This document shows positions 36,913 to 46,196 of a stretch of 64,000 bases of DNA, one piece after another. Both the position numbers and the translations under genes were made by a program. The notes under the pieces are model-generated. The model made no database searches. It saw only the letters and a list, made by a program, of their open reading frames with translations, and was not told where the DNA came from. Positions within the stretch are counted from its first letter, which is position 1. Every line of letters begins with the position of its first letter. Source of the DNA: Mycolicibacterium goodii (GTDB lineage Bacteria > Actinomycetota > Actinomycetes > Mycobacteriales > Mycobacteriaceae); contig NZ_CP092364.2 in NCBI RefSeq assembly GCF_022370755.2, positions 2,294,001 to 2,358,000 of the forward strand, read 5' to 3'.

Positions 36913-37590
36913 TCATACGGGCCACTGTTCGCGGTGGTACGCGGCGTCGAAGAACATCCATTCGTAGCGGGATGTGACCACGAAATGTCGCTGCGCGGCG
37001 GCCTGTTCGGCGTCGCTGAGCGTGGGACCCAGCCGATCGGTGAGTGCGAGCACCTCGGCTACGGTTGCCGCGAACTCCTCGCCGCCGTAGCTGGCGATCC
37101 AGCGCTGGTACCGCGGATCGGTCGATCCCCGCTGTATCAGCTCGGCGCCCACCTGCGCGTAGATCCAGTAGCAGGGCAGTACCGCGGCCAGACCGTCGGC
37201 GAAGCTGCCCGCGTAGGCCGTGGCGAGAAGGTAACTCGTGTAGGCCTGGGTGGTGGGGCTGATCGGCTCGGCCTCAAGGGCCGCGACGTCGAGCCCAAGT
37301 TCCGGCAGAAGTTCACCGTGCAACCCGAGTTCGACGTCGAAGACGTCTGCGGCGTGACGCGCGAACATCGCGGTGTCGGCCAAGGTAGGTGCCTTCGCCG
37401 CGACGATCGACAGCGCGCGGGCGTAGTCGCGCAGGTAGTGGACATCCTGTGCCACGTAGTGCGCGAACGTCTTCTCCTCGAGCGTGCCGTCGGTGAGACC
37501 GGTGAGAAACGGGTGCGCGAGGATATCGGCGTAGACGGATTCGATCTGCTGCCACAACCGGGCCGAGAAGGTGTGCGGGTTCGGGTGCAT
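36913..37590 (-). CDS. tenA: TenA family aminopyrimidine aminohydrolase/thiaminase II-like
   Basis: From ATG 37590 the product has 225 residues. It is an all-helical TenA domain with YVAQDVHYLRDYARALSI, EPISPTTQAYTSYLLATA, the catalytic Cys in AVLPCYWIYAQVG near residue 135, and the C-terminal SRYEWMFFDAAYHREQWP with the active-site Glu. TenA hydrolyses aminopyrimidines to salvage thiamin. No TPP riboswitch motif was seen upstream. The frame upstream of 37590 has atypical composition. Some TenA relatives act elsewhere, so the substrate is not certain. Confidence 0.87.
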   Translation of the reverse strand: MHPNPHTFSARLWQQIESVYADILAHPFLTGLTDGTLEEKTFAHYVAQDVHYLRDYARALSIVAAKAPTLADTAMFARHAADVFDVELGLHGELLPELGLDVAALEAEPISPTTQAYTSYLLATAYAGSFADGLAAVLPCYWIYAQVGAELIQRGSTDPRYQRWIASYGGEEFAATVAEVLALTDRLGPTLSDAEQAAAQRHFVVTSRYEWMFFDAAYHREQWPV

Positions 37591-37965
37591 GTGCACATCC
37601 TGACAGCCGATCGAGTCCGCGTCGGCCCCTGGCTCGCGGTACGGCGCAGCCAGGGCGCGCCGATCACCGCCCCAGCAACCATTTCCCGTGACGGCGGCGT
37701 CCGGTGCGAGCGTGACGGCACCGGTGGCGGTGATGAGACCGTGATGGTCGCCGACCGGTGCATCGTCACTGCGCGATCGTGGCTCCGGCGCGGTCAACAA
37801 GGTCCCTTCATCACCGTTCGGTCACGGTATTGCATCTGATCGACGTTGTGCCCCAGACGGATTGGGCAAACTGCCAGGTGGCGAGGTAGAACTAATCGAC
37901 GCTACTGGAGTCGACCAGCAGTCAGCGTCGTGTTTCACCCCGAGGTCGAGAGAGTTGATGTTCGG
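37591..37965. other. Divergent promoter region between tenA and the RipD-like gene
   Basis: These 375 bp hold no gene I can support. The left half is GC-rich and the right half (about 37800-37965) is AT-richer. No THI-box (TPP riboswitch) conserved blocks such as CTGAGA with the pyrophosphate helix were found on either strand. Confidence 0.45.
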
Positions 37966-39822: not shown

Positions 39823-39901
39823 GAGCTGATCTCGCCGGCCGCCCGTGGCGTGTCGCGGTGCTTGCCGAATTGTCAACGGTAAGCCCTTAGACTGTGCCAT
39901 C

Positions 39902-40684
39902 GTGGGCATACTGTTCGGCTTCGCGCCATGGATCATCTACTGGGTACTCGTCGGCAACGTCCCGTTTCTGACCGCTGTGCTGGTCGCGCTGGCGACGGCC
40001 GTGGCGACGTTCGTCATCAGCAGGATGTCGGGCGCTCCGGGACGAACGCTGGAGGTCGGCGCCCTCGCGACGTTCGTCGTGCTGACGATCCTGACCCTGG
40101 TGCTCAGCCAGGACGCGATGGAGCGGTGGATGCAGCCGCTGAGCAACGCGGGCATCTTCGGTGTCGCGCTGGTCGGCGCGATCGTCGGAAAACCGTTCGT
40201 CAAGGAGTTCGCCGAGGTCGGTCAGCCGCCGGGGGTGGTGGAAAGCGATCTGTTCAAGCGCATCGTCGCGATCCTCACCTGGGTGTGGGTCGGCACGTTC
40301 GCCGGGATGACGATCTCCTCGGCGATACCGCCGATCGTGCAGGGCGACGCCACGATCCTCGACACCAGGACCCCGTTGTCCTTTGTGTGCTACTGGGTGA
40401 TCCCGTTCGTGCTGCTCGGGGCGGCGGCACTGGTGTCGCGCGTGCTGCCCGACCGAATGATGGAAGGCATCGACGACGTCGTCCGCAAGACCACGTTCGT
40501 CGCCTACAGCGAGGCCGCCATCGACGAGCTGTACTACCTGGCGCAGGAGCACGCCAACCGCGAGGTGGGACCGGGACAGGAGGCCTACGACGTCAGGGTC
40601 GGCGGCTCGGGCACACCGCTGGTGGGTGACGAGAGCCGCATGTCGTGGCCGTCGACGTACAAGGTGCGCGAACGCAAGAAGTGA
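39902..40684 (+). CDS. Multi-pass membrane protein of unknown function
   Basis: From GTG 39902 the 260-residue protein has five or six predicted transmembrane helices (about 3-17, 20-41, 52-69, 83-97, 120-145 and 160-180). A soluble C-terminal region of about 70 residues follows (DDVVRKTTFVAYSEAAIDELYYLAQEHANRE). I do not recognise the family. It follows the M48 peptidase gene by 79 bp on the same strand and converges with the CPBP gene. Confidence 0.75.
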   Translation: MGILFGFAPWIIYWVLVGNVPFLTAVLVALATAVATFVISRMSGAPGRTLEVGALATFVVLTILTLVLSQDAMERWMQPLSNAGIFGVALVGAIVGKPFVKEFAEVGQPPGVVESDLFKRIVAILTWVWVGTFAGMTISSAIPPIVQGDATILDTRTPLSFVCYWVIPFVLLGAAALVSRVLPDRMMEGIDDVVRKTTFVAYSEAAIDELYYLAQEHANREVGPGQEAYDVRVGGSGTPLVGDESRMSWPSTYKVRERKK

Positions 40685-40705: not shown

Positions 40706-41416
40706 TCAGGTCGGACCCATGCCCATCAGCCCGAACGCCAGCACCAGACCGGGCAACAGGTTCGTGACCTGGTGGGCGGCGATGCCGGCGAGCAGCCCGT
40801 CGGTGTACAACCGCGCGACGGCGATCGGGATCGCCACCACGAGGAGCAACGGCGCCCGCACGGGTTCGAAATGCGCCAGCGCGAAGACCACCGTGGAGAC
40901 CACGACCGCGACGACGCGCCCCCATCGTTGTTCGAGTGCGCCCCACAGCAGGCCGCGATAGACGATCTCCTCGCAGACCGGCGCGATGAACACGACCGTC
41001 ACGAACACCGCAGCCGCCAACGGCCACGTGGCACGCACGCCTTCGAACACCTCGCCCACCGCTGAGGTGGTGTCGGATCCGACGATCGACAGGTACAGCG
41101 CCGCGGCGGGCAGTGTGACGAACAGGCCGCCGAAACCGAAGGCGAGGCCGATCCATAGTTCACGCCACGCCCAGCGCAGCCGGAAATCGATGCGGGCACC
41201 GTTGCCCCGTAGCCGGGCGATGAGCCCGGCAAGTGCGGCGGCGAGCATGGTCGGCACCGCAATGGTGACCAGCATCAGCCATACCGGCGGTTGCGACCGG
41301 GCCACCGTGAACGCCAACGCGCCGGAGATCACCAGATAGGCGATCTCTACGAGGAAAAAGGCGCCAAGCCCCCAACGGTGCGGTGGATGCGCGGCACCTG
41401 TTTGCGCTCCGATCAT
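40706..41416 (-). CDS. CPBP family intramembrane metalloprotease
   Basis: The 236-residue protein has several transmembrane helices and the CPBP/Abi motifs: [11 protein letters not shown] (EExxxR), [11 protein letters not shown] (Fxx-x-H), and [10 protein letters not shown] with the third His. Such enzymes cleave within membranes; in eukaryotes they process prenylated proteins, and in bacteria roles include bacteriocin immunity. Its ATG overlaps the upp stop by four bases, making it the last gene of the URC1-URC4-upp operon. Whether it has a role in uracil use is unknown. Confidence 0.85.
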
Positions 41417-42042
41417 TTGGTGCCGAAGATGCGGTCGCCGGCATCGCCGAGTCCGGGCACGATGTAGCCGTGCTCGTCGAGGGCGCGGTCGACCGCCGCG
41501 GTGTAGACCGTCACCTCGGGATGCGCGGTCTGTACCGCCGCGACGCCTTCCGGGCACGTCAGCAGACAGACGAACTTGATGGAACGCGGCCGGTGCTCCT
41601 TGACGCGGTCGATCGCGGCGACCGCGGAGTTGCCGGTGGCCAGCATCGGATCGACGACGACGACGTCGCGCTCGGCGACATCGTTGGGAAGCTTGAAGTA
41701 GTACTCAACCGCCACAAGAGTTTTCGGATCTCGGTACAGGCCGATGTGGCCGACGCGGGCGTTCGGCACGACACTCAGCATGCCGTCGAGGATGCCGTTG
41801 CCGGCGCGCAGGATCGAGACGAACACCAGCTTCTTGCCGTCGATGACGGTGCCGGTCGTGGTTTCCAGCGGGGTTTCGATCTGAACCGAGTGCAACGGGA
41901 TGTCGCGCAGCACCTCGTAGGTCATCAGCATCGAGATCTCGTTCAGCAGCTGGCGGAAGCCCTTGCTCGACACATCTTTCTGCCGCATGAGCGTGAGCTT
42001 GTGTTGGACCAGCGGGTGATCGATCAGGTGCAGGGTGCCCAT
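41413..42042 (-). CDS. upp: Uracil phosphoribosyltransferase
   Basis: The 209-residue protein converts uracil and PRPP to UMP. It has [25 protein letters not shown] at the N-terminus, [12 protein letters not shown], the PRPP-binding loop [18 protein letters not shown], and the uracil-binding C-terminus [23 protein letters not shown] 42042 follows AGAGGA. It lies 10 bp after the URC4 gene and overlaps the CPBP gene. In this operon Upp probably supplies UMP for the URC catabolic route as well as for salvage. Confidence 0.95.
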
Positions 42043-42052
42043 CGGGTCCTCT

Positions 42053-43255
42053 CTAGAAGACGGTGCCGTCACTGTCGATGGAAAGCGGTGGTCGCCCGCC
42101 ACGCAGGCGTTGTGCCAGAGCGCGACCGGCGGCCCACGTGCCGCCTTCGAGCACACACGCCAACGGCAGGTCCGGTGCGCCGAGCAGATCCCGGGCGAGC
42201 GGGGCGACCTCGTCGAGGAGAGCCACGGTGAGAGCACGCCACTCGACGATGAATTCGTCACCCACCGACCAGGTGTGGTCGACCAGGTCGGGATCACGCA
42301 ACCGCAACACGCCGGTGTCGAGAAACAGGCCGCCGTTACGGTATTCGGGCAACCCGGTCAGTTCGTCGAGCCCGCCGATCCGCACCCCGGCCCATTCGAA
42401 CGGCTCGAGCAGCGAGTAGGTGAGCCACTGGGACAGCTTGTGGAACGGCACCCACCCGCGAGATGGCCCCGGTCCTGGCACCGCCCGATGTGGCCAGCAG
42501 TCACCGAGCGGATGGTCGTCGATGGCGTTCGGCGTCAACCATATTCGGCTGTACGACGCCAACAGCCGGTCGAGGATGTCGTGTGCGGCGACGTGACCGT
42601 CCGGATCGAGGAGCGGCGCCAGCAGCGTGCTGGGTCGGGCGTTGTCGGATTGGCAGGCGAGCGCGGCGGCAAGGCGGTGCAACAGCTGCACCCGGCCGTC
42701 CAGACCCACCAGGGGGTTGTCCGATCCGGCCTGGAACGCGCGGCCCAGCGCCTCGGGGTCGAGGCGTGCCAGGCCGTCGGCGTCCACGCGCAGCGGATCG
42801 CCGGGATCGCTGGAGAACAACCCGCTGCAGAAGGCGTGGAAACTGGCCACCCCCAGGCCTTCGGACCGCGTGAAGCTCTTACCGGTGTCGGCTTCGGTGT
42901 ATCGCCAATCCGGTCCTGCTCCCGCGTCGAGCAGCACACTCACCACGGTCAGGTCGATCAGGGCGTGGCCACGGGGGCCGGCATCGGACAGGCGGGTGTC
43001 GATCTGCTGCTTGCGGTCGATTCCACCGGCCTCGAAATGGCGCCAGCGGCTGTGGTACGGGATGTCCAGATCGGGATAGTTGTGTCGTGTGACCACGGCG
43101 ACCTCCGTCGCGGCACGTTCGAGTGAACCGTCGTCGACGATGAACCACGACGATTCCCCGCCGCGGGCTCGGTCCAGGAGGAAACGTGCACGCTCGCGGA
43201 CGGTCCGGGTGGTACGCAGCGCCGCCACCGCGCTCGGCACGTCGGTCGGGTTCAT
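42053..43255 (-). CDS. URC4/DUF1688 family protein, uracil catabolism
   Basis: The 400-residue protein matches the DUF1688 (URC4/Urg3) family: [28 protein letters not shown] at the N-terminus, [34 protein letters not shown], and [17 protein letters not shown]. In the yeast Lachancea kluyveri URC4 is required for uracil catabolism together with URC1 and a uracil phosphoribosyltransferase; its chemical step is not settled. Here URC1 lies directly upstream (stop and start share one base) and upp directly downstream, which supports the same pathway. The protein is cytoplasmic. Confidence 0.87.
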
Positions 43256-44535
43256 CAGGCGAGCTCGCGGCCTTTCGCGATCTTCAGTTCGTCAGCGTCG
43301 GGTACCGGTCCGGTGGTGAAGTATCCCGCGGCCGTCTTGGCGTCGATCTCGACACGGGCGTCAGCCGGGATCAACTCGTCGGGGATGTTGACGCGTTCGC
43401 CGACCTCGATCCCGGACCCGACGATGGCGTCGTACTTCATGTTGCTCATCGAGACCAGCCGGTGGATCTTGCGGATCCCCAACCAGTGCAATACGTCCGG
43501 CATGAGCTCCTGGAACCTCATGTCCTGCACGCCCGCGACGCATTCGGTGCGGGCGAAGTACTGGTCGGCGGTGTCACCGCCCGGCTGCCGCTTGCGGGCG
43601 TTGTAGACGAGGAACTTGGTGACCTCACCGAGTGCGCGGCCCTCCTTGCGCGAGTAGGCCACGAGTCCGACCCCGCCGCGCTGTGCGCCGAGGATGCACT
43701 CCTCGATCGCGTGCGTGAGATAGGGCCTGCACGTGCAGATGTCGGAGCCGAACACATCGGAACCGTTGCACTCGTCGTGCACCCGTGCGGTCAGTTCGAT
43801 CGACGGATCGGCCAGGTCTCTGGCGTCACCGAAGATGTAGAGCGTCTGTCCGCCGATCGGCGGGAGGAACACCTCAAGATCGCTGCGGGTCACCAGTTCC
43901 GGGTACATGCCGCCGGTCTCCTCGAACAGCACGCGCCGCAAATCGGTTTCGGTGCAACCGAATCGCGCGGCGACCCCGGGCAGGTGCCAGACGGGTTCTA
44001 TGGCGGCCTTGGTCACCAGCGCCGCGCCGGTGGCGAGCAGAACCCGCCCGTCCGGCTGCAAGCGGCCCTTTGCGATGGCGTCGGCGATCTCGGGCAGGAT
44101 CACGTGGGCCTTGGTGACCGCGATGGTGGGCCGGATGTCGAAGCCGGCCGCCAACTCGGCGGTGAACGCCTCGGCCACCATGGCGCCCCAGGGATCCAGA
44201 CTCACGATCGCGTTCGGATCGCTCCATTGTGGATAGGGTCCGATGACGTCGGTGGGCGCGGTGTTGGTCAGGTCGGCCCGGTGTTCGGGTGACAGTGCCC
44301 CCGATGCGACGGCCAGCGCGCGGTACACGCTGTAGGAACCGCTGTGCGTGCCGATCACGTTGCGGTGCGCGCGGGTGGTCGTCGTCCCGATCACCGGTCC
44401 GCGTTCGGCCGCCGTGGGCGCGCCCCAACGGATGCTGAGCGCGCCCTCGGCGCCGTGATGCGACGTGAGCCGGATGTGGCGTGACGCGGACCTTGTGGTC
44501 GGTGTGGGAGGAGCAGGGTTGGGTTCGGCGACCAT
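43255..44535 (-). CDS. URC1-type GTP cyclohydrolase II-like enzyme, uracil catabolism
   Basis: From ATG 44535, with GGAAGGAG 7 nt upstream, the product has 426 residues. The C-terminal half is a GTP cyclohydrolase II fold with zinc Cys C256, C267 and C269 (in HDECNGSD and SDICTCRPY). YSRKEGRALGE stands where riboflavin RibA has a QEGRGIG-type motif. A long N-terminal extension of about 200 residues is typical of URC1. URC1 opens a pyrimidine ring during uracil degradation to urea and 3-hydroxypropionate. The absence of riboflavin genes nearby and tight linkage to URC4 and upp support URC1 over RibA. Confidence 0.87.
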   Translation of the reverse strand: MVAEPNPAPPTPTTRSASRHIRLTSHHGAEGALSIRWGAPTAAERGPVIGTTTTRAHRNVIGTHSGSYSVYRALAVASGALSPEHRADLTNTAPTDVIGPYPQWSDPNAIVSLDPWGAMVAEAFTAELAAGFDIRPTIAVTKAHVILPEIADAIAKGRLQPDGRVLLATGAALVTKAAIEPVWHLPGVAARFGCTETDLRRVLFEETGGMYPELVTRSDLEVFLPPIGGQTLYIFGDARDLADPSIELTARVHDECNGSDVFGSDICTCRPYLTHAIEECILGAQRGGVGLVAYSRKEGRALGEVTKFLVYNARKRQPGGDTADQYFARTECVAGVQDMRFQELMPDVLHWLGIRKIHRLVSMSNMKYDAIVGSGIEVGERVNIPDELIPADARVEIDAKTAAGYFTTGPVPDADELKIAKGRELA

Positions 44536-44615: not shown

Positions 44616-45527
44616 TCAGCCTGTGACCGTCTCGAGACCCTGGCCGACCGTGGGGTCGAAATAGTGGCCCGCGTCGAGATCGGCGAGCAGACCGGGACCG
44701 GTTGGTTCCCACCCCAGCCGCTTCCTGGTCAGTGTGCTCGGAACCTTGGCGTCGAGGGTGAAGAACGCGCCGATCCAACCGAAATGTGACATGGTCTCGT
44801 CGCGGGGGATCGAGACGGTCGGCAGTCCGAGCCCGCGGCCGATGGTCTGCGCGATGTCCCGCACTGCGATGCCCTCGTCGGCCACGGCGTGCCACCGCGA
44901 GCCCGCCTGTGCCGCTTCGAGCGCGAGCCGGAACACCCGGGCCGCGTCTTCGCGGTGCACGGCCGACCATGTGTTGGACCCGTCAGCCGGAAAGCCCGAC
45001 ACGCCGCGGGCGCGTGCGATCGAGATCAACTCGGGGACGAAACCGTGATCGCCCGTGCCGTGTACCGACGGTGGCAGTCGCACCACTGAGGCCCGTACCC
45101 CCTTCGAAACCTGCTGTAGCGCCGTAGGTTCCGAGAGGCGAGGATATCCGGCCGGAACGGCGTCATCCTCGGTGGTGCCGCGCGGCAGACCGCCGATTCC
45201 GGCTGCGACGACCAGAGGTCGCTCCGAACCGGCCAGTGCGTCCCCGAGGGCCTCGATCACGATGCGGTCGGTCTCCACGGACTTCGCGAAGTCGGTGAAG
45301 TCGTGCACGAACGCGAGGTGGATGACCCCGTCGGCATCCGCGGCGCCTGCTCGCAGGCTGTCCAGATCGGTGAGGTCGCCGCGGTGTACCTCGCGGCCTG
45401 CCTCGGCCAGCGCGTGGGCCGACGCGTCGGAGCGGGCCAATCCGATGACCTGGTGACCTGCGGCGATGAGCTCGTCGGACACCGCCGACCCGATGAAACC
45501 GGATGCTCCGGTGACGAAAACACGCAT
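44616..45527 (-). CDS. NAD(P)-dependent epimerase/dehydratase-like SDR
   Basis: The 303-residue extended SDR begins with the Rossmann motif VFVTGASGFIGSAV and continues with DLTDLDSLRAG, HLAFVHDF and VRLPPSVHGTGDHGF. The Tyr-x3-Lys position is not obvious (YPRLSEPTALQQVSKG lies there), so catalysis may be atypical, as in NmrA-like or atypical SDRs. Substrate is unknown. It is divergent from a TetR gene, and two palindromes lie between them. Confidence 0.82.
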   Translation of the reverse strand: MRVFVTGASGFIGSAVSDELIAAGHQVIGLARSDASAHALAEAGREVHRGDLTDLDSLRAGAADADGVIHLAFVHDFTDFAKSVETDRIVIEALGDALAGSERPLVVAAGIGGLPRGTTEDDAVPAGYPRLSEPTALQQVSKGVRASVVRLPPSVHGTGDHGFVPELISIARARGVSGFPADGSNTWSAVHREDAARVFRLALEAAQAGSRWHAVADEGIAVRDIAQTIGRGLGLPTVSIPRDETMSHFGWIGAFFTLDAKVPSTLTRKRLGWEPTGPGLLADLDAGHYFDPTVGQGLETVTG

Positions 45528-45629: not shown

Positions 45630-46196
45630 ATGAGTCGCTGGGAGCCCGACGCGCGCGGCCGGCTGGAACGTGCCGCGCTCGAGCTGTACGCCGAGCGTGG
45701 ATTCGAGTCGACGACGGTCGCCGAGATCGCCGAGCGTGCCGGGCTCACCGAACGGACCTTCTTCCGGCACTTCGCCGACAAGCGCGAGGTGCTGTTCGGT
45801 GGTGAACACGTGCTGCAGGACCTTTTCGTCGACGCTGTCGCCGCGGCTCCGGCGAGCGCCACCGCATTCGACGCCGTCGCTGCGGGACTCGACGCCGTGG
45901 GGCGGATGTTCGCGGGCCGGTACGCCGACGCGCGTCGGCGTCAGGCAGTCGTCGACGCGAACACGGCGCTGCAGGAACGGGAACTGATCAAGCTCTCGAC
46001 GCTGGCGGCCGCGGTCGCGGCGGCCCTGGGAGAGCGTGGCGTGCCGCGACCGAGGGCTGATCTGGCCGCCGAAACCGGCATCGCGGTATTCAAGGTGGCT
46101 TTCGCCCGCTGGGTCGCCGGTGAGCGCGAGACAGATCTACGTGCGGTGATGGGACAGGTTCTCCACGATCTGAGGGGTCTGGTGGCGCTCGGGTGA
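45630..46196 (+). CDS. TetR family transcriptional regulator
   Basis: The 188-residue protein has a classical TetR HTH (about 10-55): LELYAERGFESTTVAEIAERAGLTERTFFRHFADKRE. A helical ligand domain follows. It is divergent from the SDR gene, with two palindromes between, so it probably represses the SDR and itself. The inducer is unknown. The ATG at 45630 is 18 bp from the nearer palindrome. Confidence 0.9.
   Translation: MSRWEPDARGRLERAALELYAERGFESTTVAEIAERAGLTERTFFRHFADKREVLFGGEHVLQDLFVDAVAAAPASATAFDAVAAGLDAVGRMFAGRYADARRRQAVVDANTALQERELIKLSTLAAAVAAALGERGVPRPRADLAAETGIAVFKVAFARWVAGERETDLRAVMGQVLHDLRGLVALG

What the first reader, a model, noticed from the sequence alone, without database searches (positions are those of the whole stretch)
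40706..44535. URC1-URC4-upp-CPBP operon: a likely bacterial URC pathway for uracil degradation
Four genes are packed with overlaps or a 10-bp gap: a GTP cyclohydrolase II-like protein with a long N-terminal extension (URC1 type), a DUF1688 protein (URC4 type), uracil phosphoribosyltransferase, and an intramembrane CPBP protease. URC1, URC4 and a uracil phosphoribosyltransferase are the genetically defined core of the yeast URC pathway, whose chemistry is only partly known. A mycobacterial operon with exactly these three genes implies use of uracil as nitrogen source by this route. The coupled CPBP protease is unexpected and has no known role in uracil use.
Basis: partly seen in the sequence, partly recalled or inferred. 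Interest (0 to 1): 0.72.

Follow-up and report, generated by a model that had tools for sequence, protein, structure and literature searches.

The report
Bacterial uracil-breakdown operon; URC4 resembles Qng1
Three neighbouring genes look like the bacterial version of a known yeast route for taking nitrogen from uracil, and one of its enzymes, whose chemistry has been unclear, looks like a relative of a known enzyme that cuts a base off its sugar-phosphate; the fourth gene beside them is probably only a neighbour.

Summary
In detail: URC1, URC4, upp and a CPBP gene are packed on the minus strand as described. URC1 is of the URC1 type (NF005536, 802 bits; RibA models below cut-off) and 86% identical to a Rhodococcus wratislaviensis protein that differs from PDB 7ej3 at 2 of 413 residues. 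URC1-URC4-upp order is kept in 79 of 79 loci showing all three. The genome has a second upp, two ureases and an allophanate hydrolase, but no RutA, dihydropyrimidine dehydrogenase or dihydropyrimidinase above cut-off. So this is a bacterial URC pathway, a known kind. CPBP is probably a neighbour: 7 of the 15 sampled genomes with it lack URC4.

The parts
43255..44535 (-). URC1: GTP cyclohydrolase II-like protein with GTP_CH_N domain; proposed UTP cyclohydrolase
   Evidence: NF005536 802 bits vs cut-off 403; RibA models at most 57.2 bits, below cut-off; full-length match to PDB 7eev/7ej3, 812 bits
42053..43255 (-). URC4 (DUF1688): proposed ureidoribose-phosphate N-glycosidase of the Qng1 fold
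41413..42042 (-). upp: uracil phosphoribosyltransferase linked to the URC genes (a second copy elsewhere in the genome is 39% identical)
   Evidence: TIGR01091 275.8 bits; genome search
40706..41416 (-). CPBP (Rce1-like) intramembrane protease gene: neighbour, probably not part of the pathway
   Evidence: PF02517 62.7 bits; distribution and synteny
39845..40684 (+). converging uncharacterised gene; flank that also holds CPBP in two URC-free genomes
   Evidence: no Pfam or NCBIfam match at E up to 0.001; synteny
44616..45527 (-). NAD-dependent epimerase/SDR-type gene, ends 80 bases before URC1; not seen in the relatives compared
   Evidence: PF01370 62.7 bits; no match in any of 24 compared loci

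Best explanation
URC1-URC4-upp is a bacterial URC cassette that lets the cell take nitrogen from uracil. Upp turns uracil into UMP with PRPP; housekeeping kinases make UTP; URC1 opens the uracil ring of UTP hydrolytically, leaving urea attached to ribose phosphate and shedding a three-carbon piece; URC4 then hydrolyses the N-glycosidic bond of that ureidoribose phosphate to urea and ribose phosphate; urease, or urea carboxylase with allophanate hydrolase, turns urea into ammonia and CO2. Shown here: families, order, gene content of the genome, and the relation of URC4 to Qng1 with corresponding active-site positions. Inferred: every reaction in this organism, the exact product of URC1, and the phosphorylation state of the URC4 substrate (a 5'-monophosphate is my guess, because GTP cyclohydrolase II releases pyrophosphate (recalled) and Qng1 takes a 5'-monophosphate).
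For: URC1 family placement, full-length match to 7eev/7ej3, and the R. wratislaviensis URC1 beside its own URC4 and upp differing from 7ej3 at 2 of 413 residues; [quoted passage not shown] Order URC1-URC4-upp in 79 of 79 loci with all three visible. In Pseudomonadota 33 of 35 loci with 8 kb downstream carry at least one of: BMP-type ABC transporter parts, an ABC ATPase, a cytosine deaminase-type gene (24 of 35), a phosphorylase-superfamily gene. S. pombe urg1, urg2 (UPRT-like) and urg3 (DUF1688) are clustered and induced by uracil (PMC2174524); urg1 and urg3 are called orthologues of URC1 and URC4 (PMC3869809). L. kluyveri URC4 is placed at ribosylurea to urea (PMC7530994). URC4 fold: the window model and a URC4 from another actinobacterial family both match only Qng1 strongly. 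Profile-profile E 9.8e-8; in a repeat with 113 URC4 rows score 52.9 against at most 23.5 in 60 column shuffles and 25.1 reversed. Qng1 K199, D231, D298, W302 align with URC4 K273, E304, E370, W374, invariant in 113 of 113 rows. Own genome: no RutA, DPD or dihydropyrimidinase over cut-off, two urease alpha matches, one allophanate hydrolase over cut-off.
Confidence: 0.72

Rival explanations
1. The pathway is URC, but URC4 does something other than hydrolyse the glycosidic bond of ureidoribose phosphate: for example it releases the three-carbon fragment, acts on intact uridine nucleotides, or transfers a group as another enzyme of this fold does.
For: Asp to Glu change at both acidic positions and a larger protein (400 against about 320 residues); a phage glycinyltransferase shares the fold weakly. 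The substrate is not tested here.
Against: Yeast URC4 is reported to take ribosylurea to urea (PMC7530994, passages); the strong fold match is to an N-glycosidase only.
Confidence: 0.2
2. URC4 in this genome is a queuosine salvage enzyme (a Qng1 proper) that happens to sit beside URC1.
For: Same fold and corresponding residues; the genome has a TGT gene and no PF10343 match.
Against: URC4 lies between URC1 and upp in 79 of 79 loci; genome G351 carries both a URC4 and a separate PF10343 protein; the window URC4 has no PF10343 match at E up to 10.
Confidence: 0.03
3. URC1 is a riboflavin-pathway GTP cyclohydrolase II and the operon has nothing to do with uracil.
For: PF00925 domain with a C-x10-C-x-C pattern (the metal-site meaning is recalled); PDB and NCBIfam name the family 'GTP cyclohydrolase II'.
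Against: RibA-type models score at most 57.2 bits, all below cut-off, against 802 for NF005536; constant linkage to URC4 and upp.
Confidence: 0.02
4. The CPBP protease is a working part of the uracil operon, for example by processing a transporter or regulator.
For: 4-base overlap with upp in the window; next to upp in 4 of 80 named loci and in 3 of the 35 genus genomes with URC4, own included; L069 could keep a GTGA overlap.
Against: No match in the fetched stretch of any of the 42 Pseudomonadota loci; 7 of 15 genus genomes with the gene lack URC4, and in G020 and G049 it keeps the window's flanks; in L056 and L057 an in-frame ATG stands 34 and 22 bases past the upp stop (read).
Confidence: 0.04

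Closest known systems
URC pathway of Lachancea kluyveri and urg1-urg2-urg3 of Schizosaccharomyces pombe
   Same: Same three gene families: URC1/urg1, URC4/urg3 (DUF1688) and a uracil phosphoribosyltransferase; clustered and uracil-induced in S. pombe
   Different: Here one tight operon in a bacterium; the genome has urease as well as an allophanate hydrolase, where the yeast uses urea amidolyase URC3/URC5; no permease or Zn-finger regulator among the eight genes scanned
Rhodococcus wratislaviensis URC1 locus and PDB 7eev/7ej3
   Same: URC1 full-length match at 812 bits; R. wratislaviensis has the same URC1-URC4-upp order (L064)
   Different: 86% identity in URC1; the link of these PDB entries to the UTP cyclohydrolase paper is recalled
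Qng1 / DUF2419 (PF10343), queuosine-5'-monophosphate N-glycosidase
   Different: 15-25% identity, Glu for Asp at both acids, about 80 extra residues, different operon context, separate Pfam family
Rut and reductive (Pyd) uracil pathways
   Same: Same job: nitrogen from uracil
   Different: No RutA, PydA or dihydropyrimidinase over cut-off in this genome

Membership tests
URC pathway cassette | URC1-type cyclohydrolase-like protein, not RibA | tested here: met
   NF005536 802 bits vs cut-off 403; RibA models below cut-off
URC pathway cassette | URC4 / DUF1688 protein | tested here: met
   PF07958 451.6 bits vs 25
URC pathway cassette | uracil phosphoribosyltransferase | tested here: met
   TIGR01091 275.8 vs 208.35
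URC pathway cassette | an enzyme that breaks urea down in the same genome | tested here: met
   two urease alpha matches over cut-off; allophanate hydrolase 657.8 bits vs 511
URC pathway cassette | growth on uracil as nitrogen source | not testable with these tools
   needs strains
UTP cyclohydrolase | acts on UTP | not testable with these tools
   only sequence relation to 7eev/7ej3
Qng1 (PF10343) family proper | over the Pfam cut-off of PF10343 | tested here: not met
   no PF10343 match for the window URC4 at E up to 10; 22.8 bits vs 25 for L032
Qng1-like fold superfamily | Qng1 fold over most of the chain | tested here: met
Qng1-like fold superfamily | Lys199 and Asp231 (mutated in PDB entries), active-site Asp298 and Trp302 | tested here: inconclusive
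   Lys and Trp kept; both Asp replaced by Glu in 113 of 113 rows
Qng1-like fold superfamily | hydrolysis of a 5'-nucleotide N-glycosidic bond | not testable with these tools
   needs enzyme assay

The most novel reading that the evidence does not exclude
URC4 is a ureidoribose-5'-phosphate N-glycosidase, a second metabolic branch of the Qng1 fold beside queuine salvage: a DNA-glycosylase-like fold turned to cutting urea off ribose phosphate, with both acids changed from Asp to Glu. With URC1 and upp it would complete a three-enzyme route from uracil to urea that runs through a nucleotide.
Probability: 0.62. Interest if true: 0.68.

Novelty: new member of a known kind. Interest (0 to 1): 0.55.

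Why it matters
The operon itself is one more case of a known pathway, found in 35 of 98 sampled genomes of the genus and also in Burkholderiales. What matters is URC4: a protein still called 'domain of unknown function' gets a structural relative with a known reaction and named active-site residues, so an unclear step of one of the known uracil routes becomes a simple enzyme assay with point mutants. It would also mean that the Qng1 fold serves nitrogen metabolism as well as tRNA-base salvage.

Tried and rejected
CPBP as pathway member: set aside on distribution and synteny. URC1 as RibA: rejected. Alternative uracil routes in the genome: the best RutA hit, 129 bits of 498, is a dimethylsulfone monooxygenase SfnG type (601.8 bits, cut-off 383); the best dihydropyrimidinase hit, 182 of 393, is dihydroorotase (738 bits); the best DPD hit is 45 of 335. 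Queuosine role of URC4: I hoped that absence of TGT would exclude it, but TGT is present, so this test failed and the rival is set aside on context. Urea route: I first wrote of urease alone; a last search found an allophanate hydrolase too. Viral contigs: no URC4 by the patterns used. PDB by sequence alone: no URC4 relative. The first clustering script crashed and split URC4, redone; the maps still show antisense ORFs in place of some real genes (the SDR gene of the window among them), so statements on URC1, URC4, upp, CPBP, SDR and TetR rest on tblastn. Nucleoside reading of the Pseudomonadota clusters: the ABC parts score best against 'putative B6 transporter' models below cut-off, the ABC ATPase cluster is a broad family, and the phosphorylase representative passes the MTA/SAH nucleosidase cut-off of TIGR01704, so I claim only 'cytosine deaminase-type gene and BMP-type transporter parts', each from one scanned representative per cluster. 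Paper searches (10 of 10): no title or abstract start that was listed shows a URC4-Qng1 link (one search listed 20 of 23 papers, 20 of 103); 'urc4'+'queuosine' and 'urg3'+'queuine' gave 0.
Full report
WHAT IS THERE. The four genes are at the stated place, minus strand, order URC1 > URC4 > upp > CPBP. URC1 43255-44535 and URC4 42053-43255 share one base; 10 bases separate URC4 from upp 41413-42042; upp and CPBP 40706-41416 overlap by four bases. Pfam and NCBIfam place them as URC1-type cyclohydrolase-like protein (PF12471 + PF00925; NF005536 802 bits, cut-off 403), DUF1688 (PF07958, 451.6 bits), uracil phosphoribosyltransferase (TIGR01091) and CPBP/Rce1-like protease (PF02517). Among the 120 listed relatives of the window's URC4 the nearest with an organism name is that of Mycolicibacterium smegmatis, 79% identical, already named 'URC4/urg3 family protein'.

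CONSERVATION. PF07958 occurs in 35 of 98 sampled genomes of the genus, own included (in one, G028, it is split over two contigs) and in 4 of 296 of the phylum (two of these four are in this genus, one of them the window's own). In the 33 loci these searches gave (own, 30 of the 34 other genus genomes with a match, 2 from another actinobacterial family; G014, G028, G052 and G066 gave no locus) URC1 and upp flank URC4 in 33 of 33. The upp of the two distant loci is only 29-30% identical to the window's; the one of these scanned (L032) is over the PRK00129 cut-off but under that of TIGR01091. These 80 are the closest relatives, so the survey leans towards near kin. By their titles 38 are Actinomycetota and 42 Pseudomonadota (37 of these labelled Comamonadaceae). 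In the URC4 tree two Comamonadaceae rows (L063, L068) lie among Rhodococcus and kin (fork 90/84; the pair itself 100/100), as lateral transfer would give; a Burkholderiales MAG row (L126) stands beside the window on a long branch (0.9), whose place the program calls unsure.

CONTEXT. In 33 of 35 Pseudomonadota loci with 8 kb of downstream sequence at least one of these follows on the same strand: BMP-type binding protein (17 of 35), ABC ATPase (20), BPD_transp_2 permease (15), cytosine deaminase-type amidohydrolase (24), phosphorylase-superfamily gene (5); in Actinomycetota 2 of 32, both by the ABC ATPase cluster. The cluster names rest on one representative each; the amidohydrolase representative scores 804 bits on the cytosine deaminase model NF005748 (cut-off 438). 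The window's own genome has a second upp, 39% identical, two urease alpha matches, one allophanate hydrolase over cut-off, and no RutA, dihydropyrimidine dehydrogenase or dihydropyrimidinase over cut-off; the best sub-threshold hits for RutA and dihydropyrimidinase are an SfnG-type monooxygenase and dihydroorotase. So URC is the only known uracil route that I found there.

THE CPBP GENE. At E up to 1e-30 a close homologue is in 15 of 98 genus genomes, own included; 8 of these have URC4 and 7 do not (G008, one of the 7, is only 70% complete). It touches the URC genes in 3 of the 8 (G000, G021, G063; G063 and L071 are probably one genome, as contig lengths agree); in G027, G037 and G081 it lies 8 to 11 kb from upp; in G041 and G028 it is on another contig. 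In URC-free G020 and G049 it sits, as in the window, beside the homologue of the converging gene 39845-40684, with some of the same genes further out on both sides (names such as tenA, nlpC, ahpE, fadD there are my labels by eye). In URC-free G084 it has several of the same neighbours in another arrangement, in G008 a short contig shows one, and in G057, G074 and G090 none of the 14 window genes compared is near it. In L059 the URC genes are followed by the converging gene without CPBP. None of the 42 Pseudomonadota loci shows a match within the fetched stretch. The spacing to upp varies: in L056 and L057 an in-frame ATG stands 34 and 22 bases past the upp stop, while L069 could keep a GTGA overlap (my reading). 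I read CPBP as a gene of the insertion site that now may share the transcript.

URC1. The window protein matches PDB 7eev and 7ej3 over its full length at 812 bits, and the R. wratislaviensis URC1 that stands beside its own URC4 and upp, 86% identical to the window's, differs from 7ej3 at 2 of 413 residues. PDB calls the molecule 'GTP cyclohydrolase II'. [quoted passage not shown] that title I saw only as a reference, cited for the URC pathway, in PMC12507026 (passages).

ACTIVE SITE. Qng1 of Sphaerobacter has PDB entries with mutants K199C and D231N, bound to queuosine or its 5'-phosphate (titles), and D298 and W302 are named as active-site residues in PMC11592518 (passages). Counting along the chain, K199 is in FYKRAQ, D231 in FADY, D298 and W302 in VDWLLW. 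In the joint alignment (10 URC4, 6 PF10343 proteins, themselves aligned with that chain through L183) these fall on URC4 K273 (PFHKLSQW), E304 (LPEY), E370 and W374 (LEGGTW); K273 and E304 are also so placed by hhalign, while E370 and W374 lie beyond its end. All four are invariant in 113 of 113 URC4 rows (107 distinct by their last 380 residues, as some genomes are present twice). Both acids are thus Glu in URC4 and Asp in Qng1.

MECHANISM. PMC7530994 (passages) reports that in L. kluyveri URC1 and URC6 take uracil to ribosylurea and 3-hydroxypropionate by steps not characterised, and that URC4 takes ribosylurea to urea. PMC2174524 (passages) shows urg1, urg2 and urg3 as neighbouring uracil-induced genes with the same domains; it also says that urg1-deleted cells grow normally with and without uracil, which does not test uracil as nitrogen source. 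[quoted passage not shown] Taking ribosylurea to urea is cleavage of an N-glycosidic bond, which is what Qng1 does to a 5'-nucleotide (PMC11592518 names queuosine-5'-monophosphate as its primary substrate). Hence my proposal: upp, then kinases, then URC1 on UTP, then URC4 as ureidoribose-phosphate N-glycosidase, then urease or urea amidolyase. The order is supported by context and literature; the URC4 step is a structural inference; the phosphate on its substrate is a guess.

NOVELTY. As a locus this is a new member of a known kind. The URC4-Qng1 relation I did not find in print: searches of an open-licence library, judged by listings, in which DUF1688 occurs in 4 papers and URC4 in none together with queuosine. 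The library does not hold Rasmussen 2014 or Hung 2023, and Andersen 2008 and Zhang 2021 were not looked up, so the link may be known to specialists or stated there.

Noticed in passing
L082, L094, L101, L104, L113 (after upp): In these five actinobacterial loci an isocitrate-lyase-family protein (one representative scanned, 762 aa) follows URC1-URC4-upp on the same strand; whether it belongs to the pathway is open.
   Followed up: no
L176, L177, L178, L082, L094, L104: In another group of mycobacteria the URC genes sit next to the homologue of window gene 36913-37800, with CPBP several kilobases off; the cassette seems to have entered or moved within one neighbourhood more than once.
   Followed up: partly
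L063, L068: URC4 of two Comamonadaceae strains groups among Rhodococcus and kin, suggesting transfer between phyla.
   Followed up: partly
G351 (L032, L183): One actinobacterial genome carries both a URC4 and a separate PF10343 (Qng1-type) protein.
   Followed up: partly
window 45630-46196 + and 44616-45527 -: A TetR-type regulator gene lies divergent from the SDR/epimerase-type gene that ends 80 bases before URC1; neither has a match in the 24 related loci compared.
   Followed up: partly
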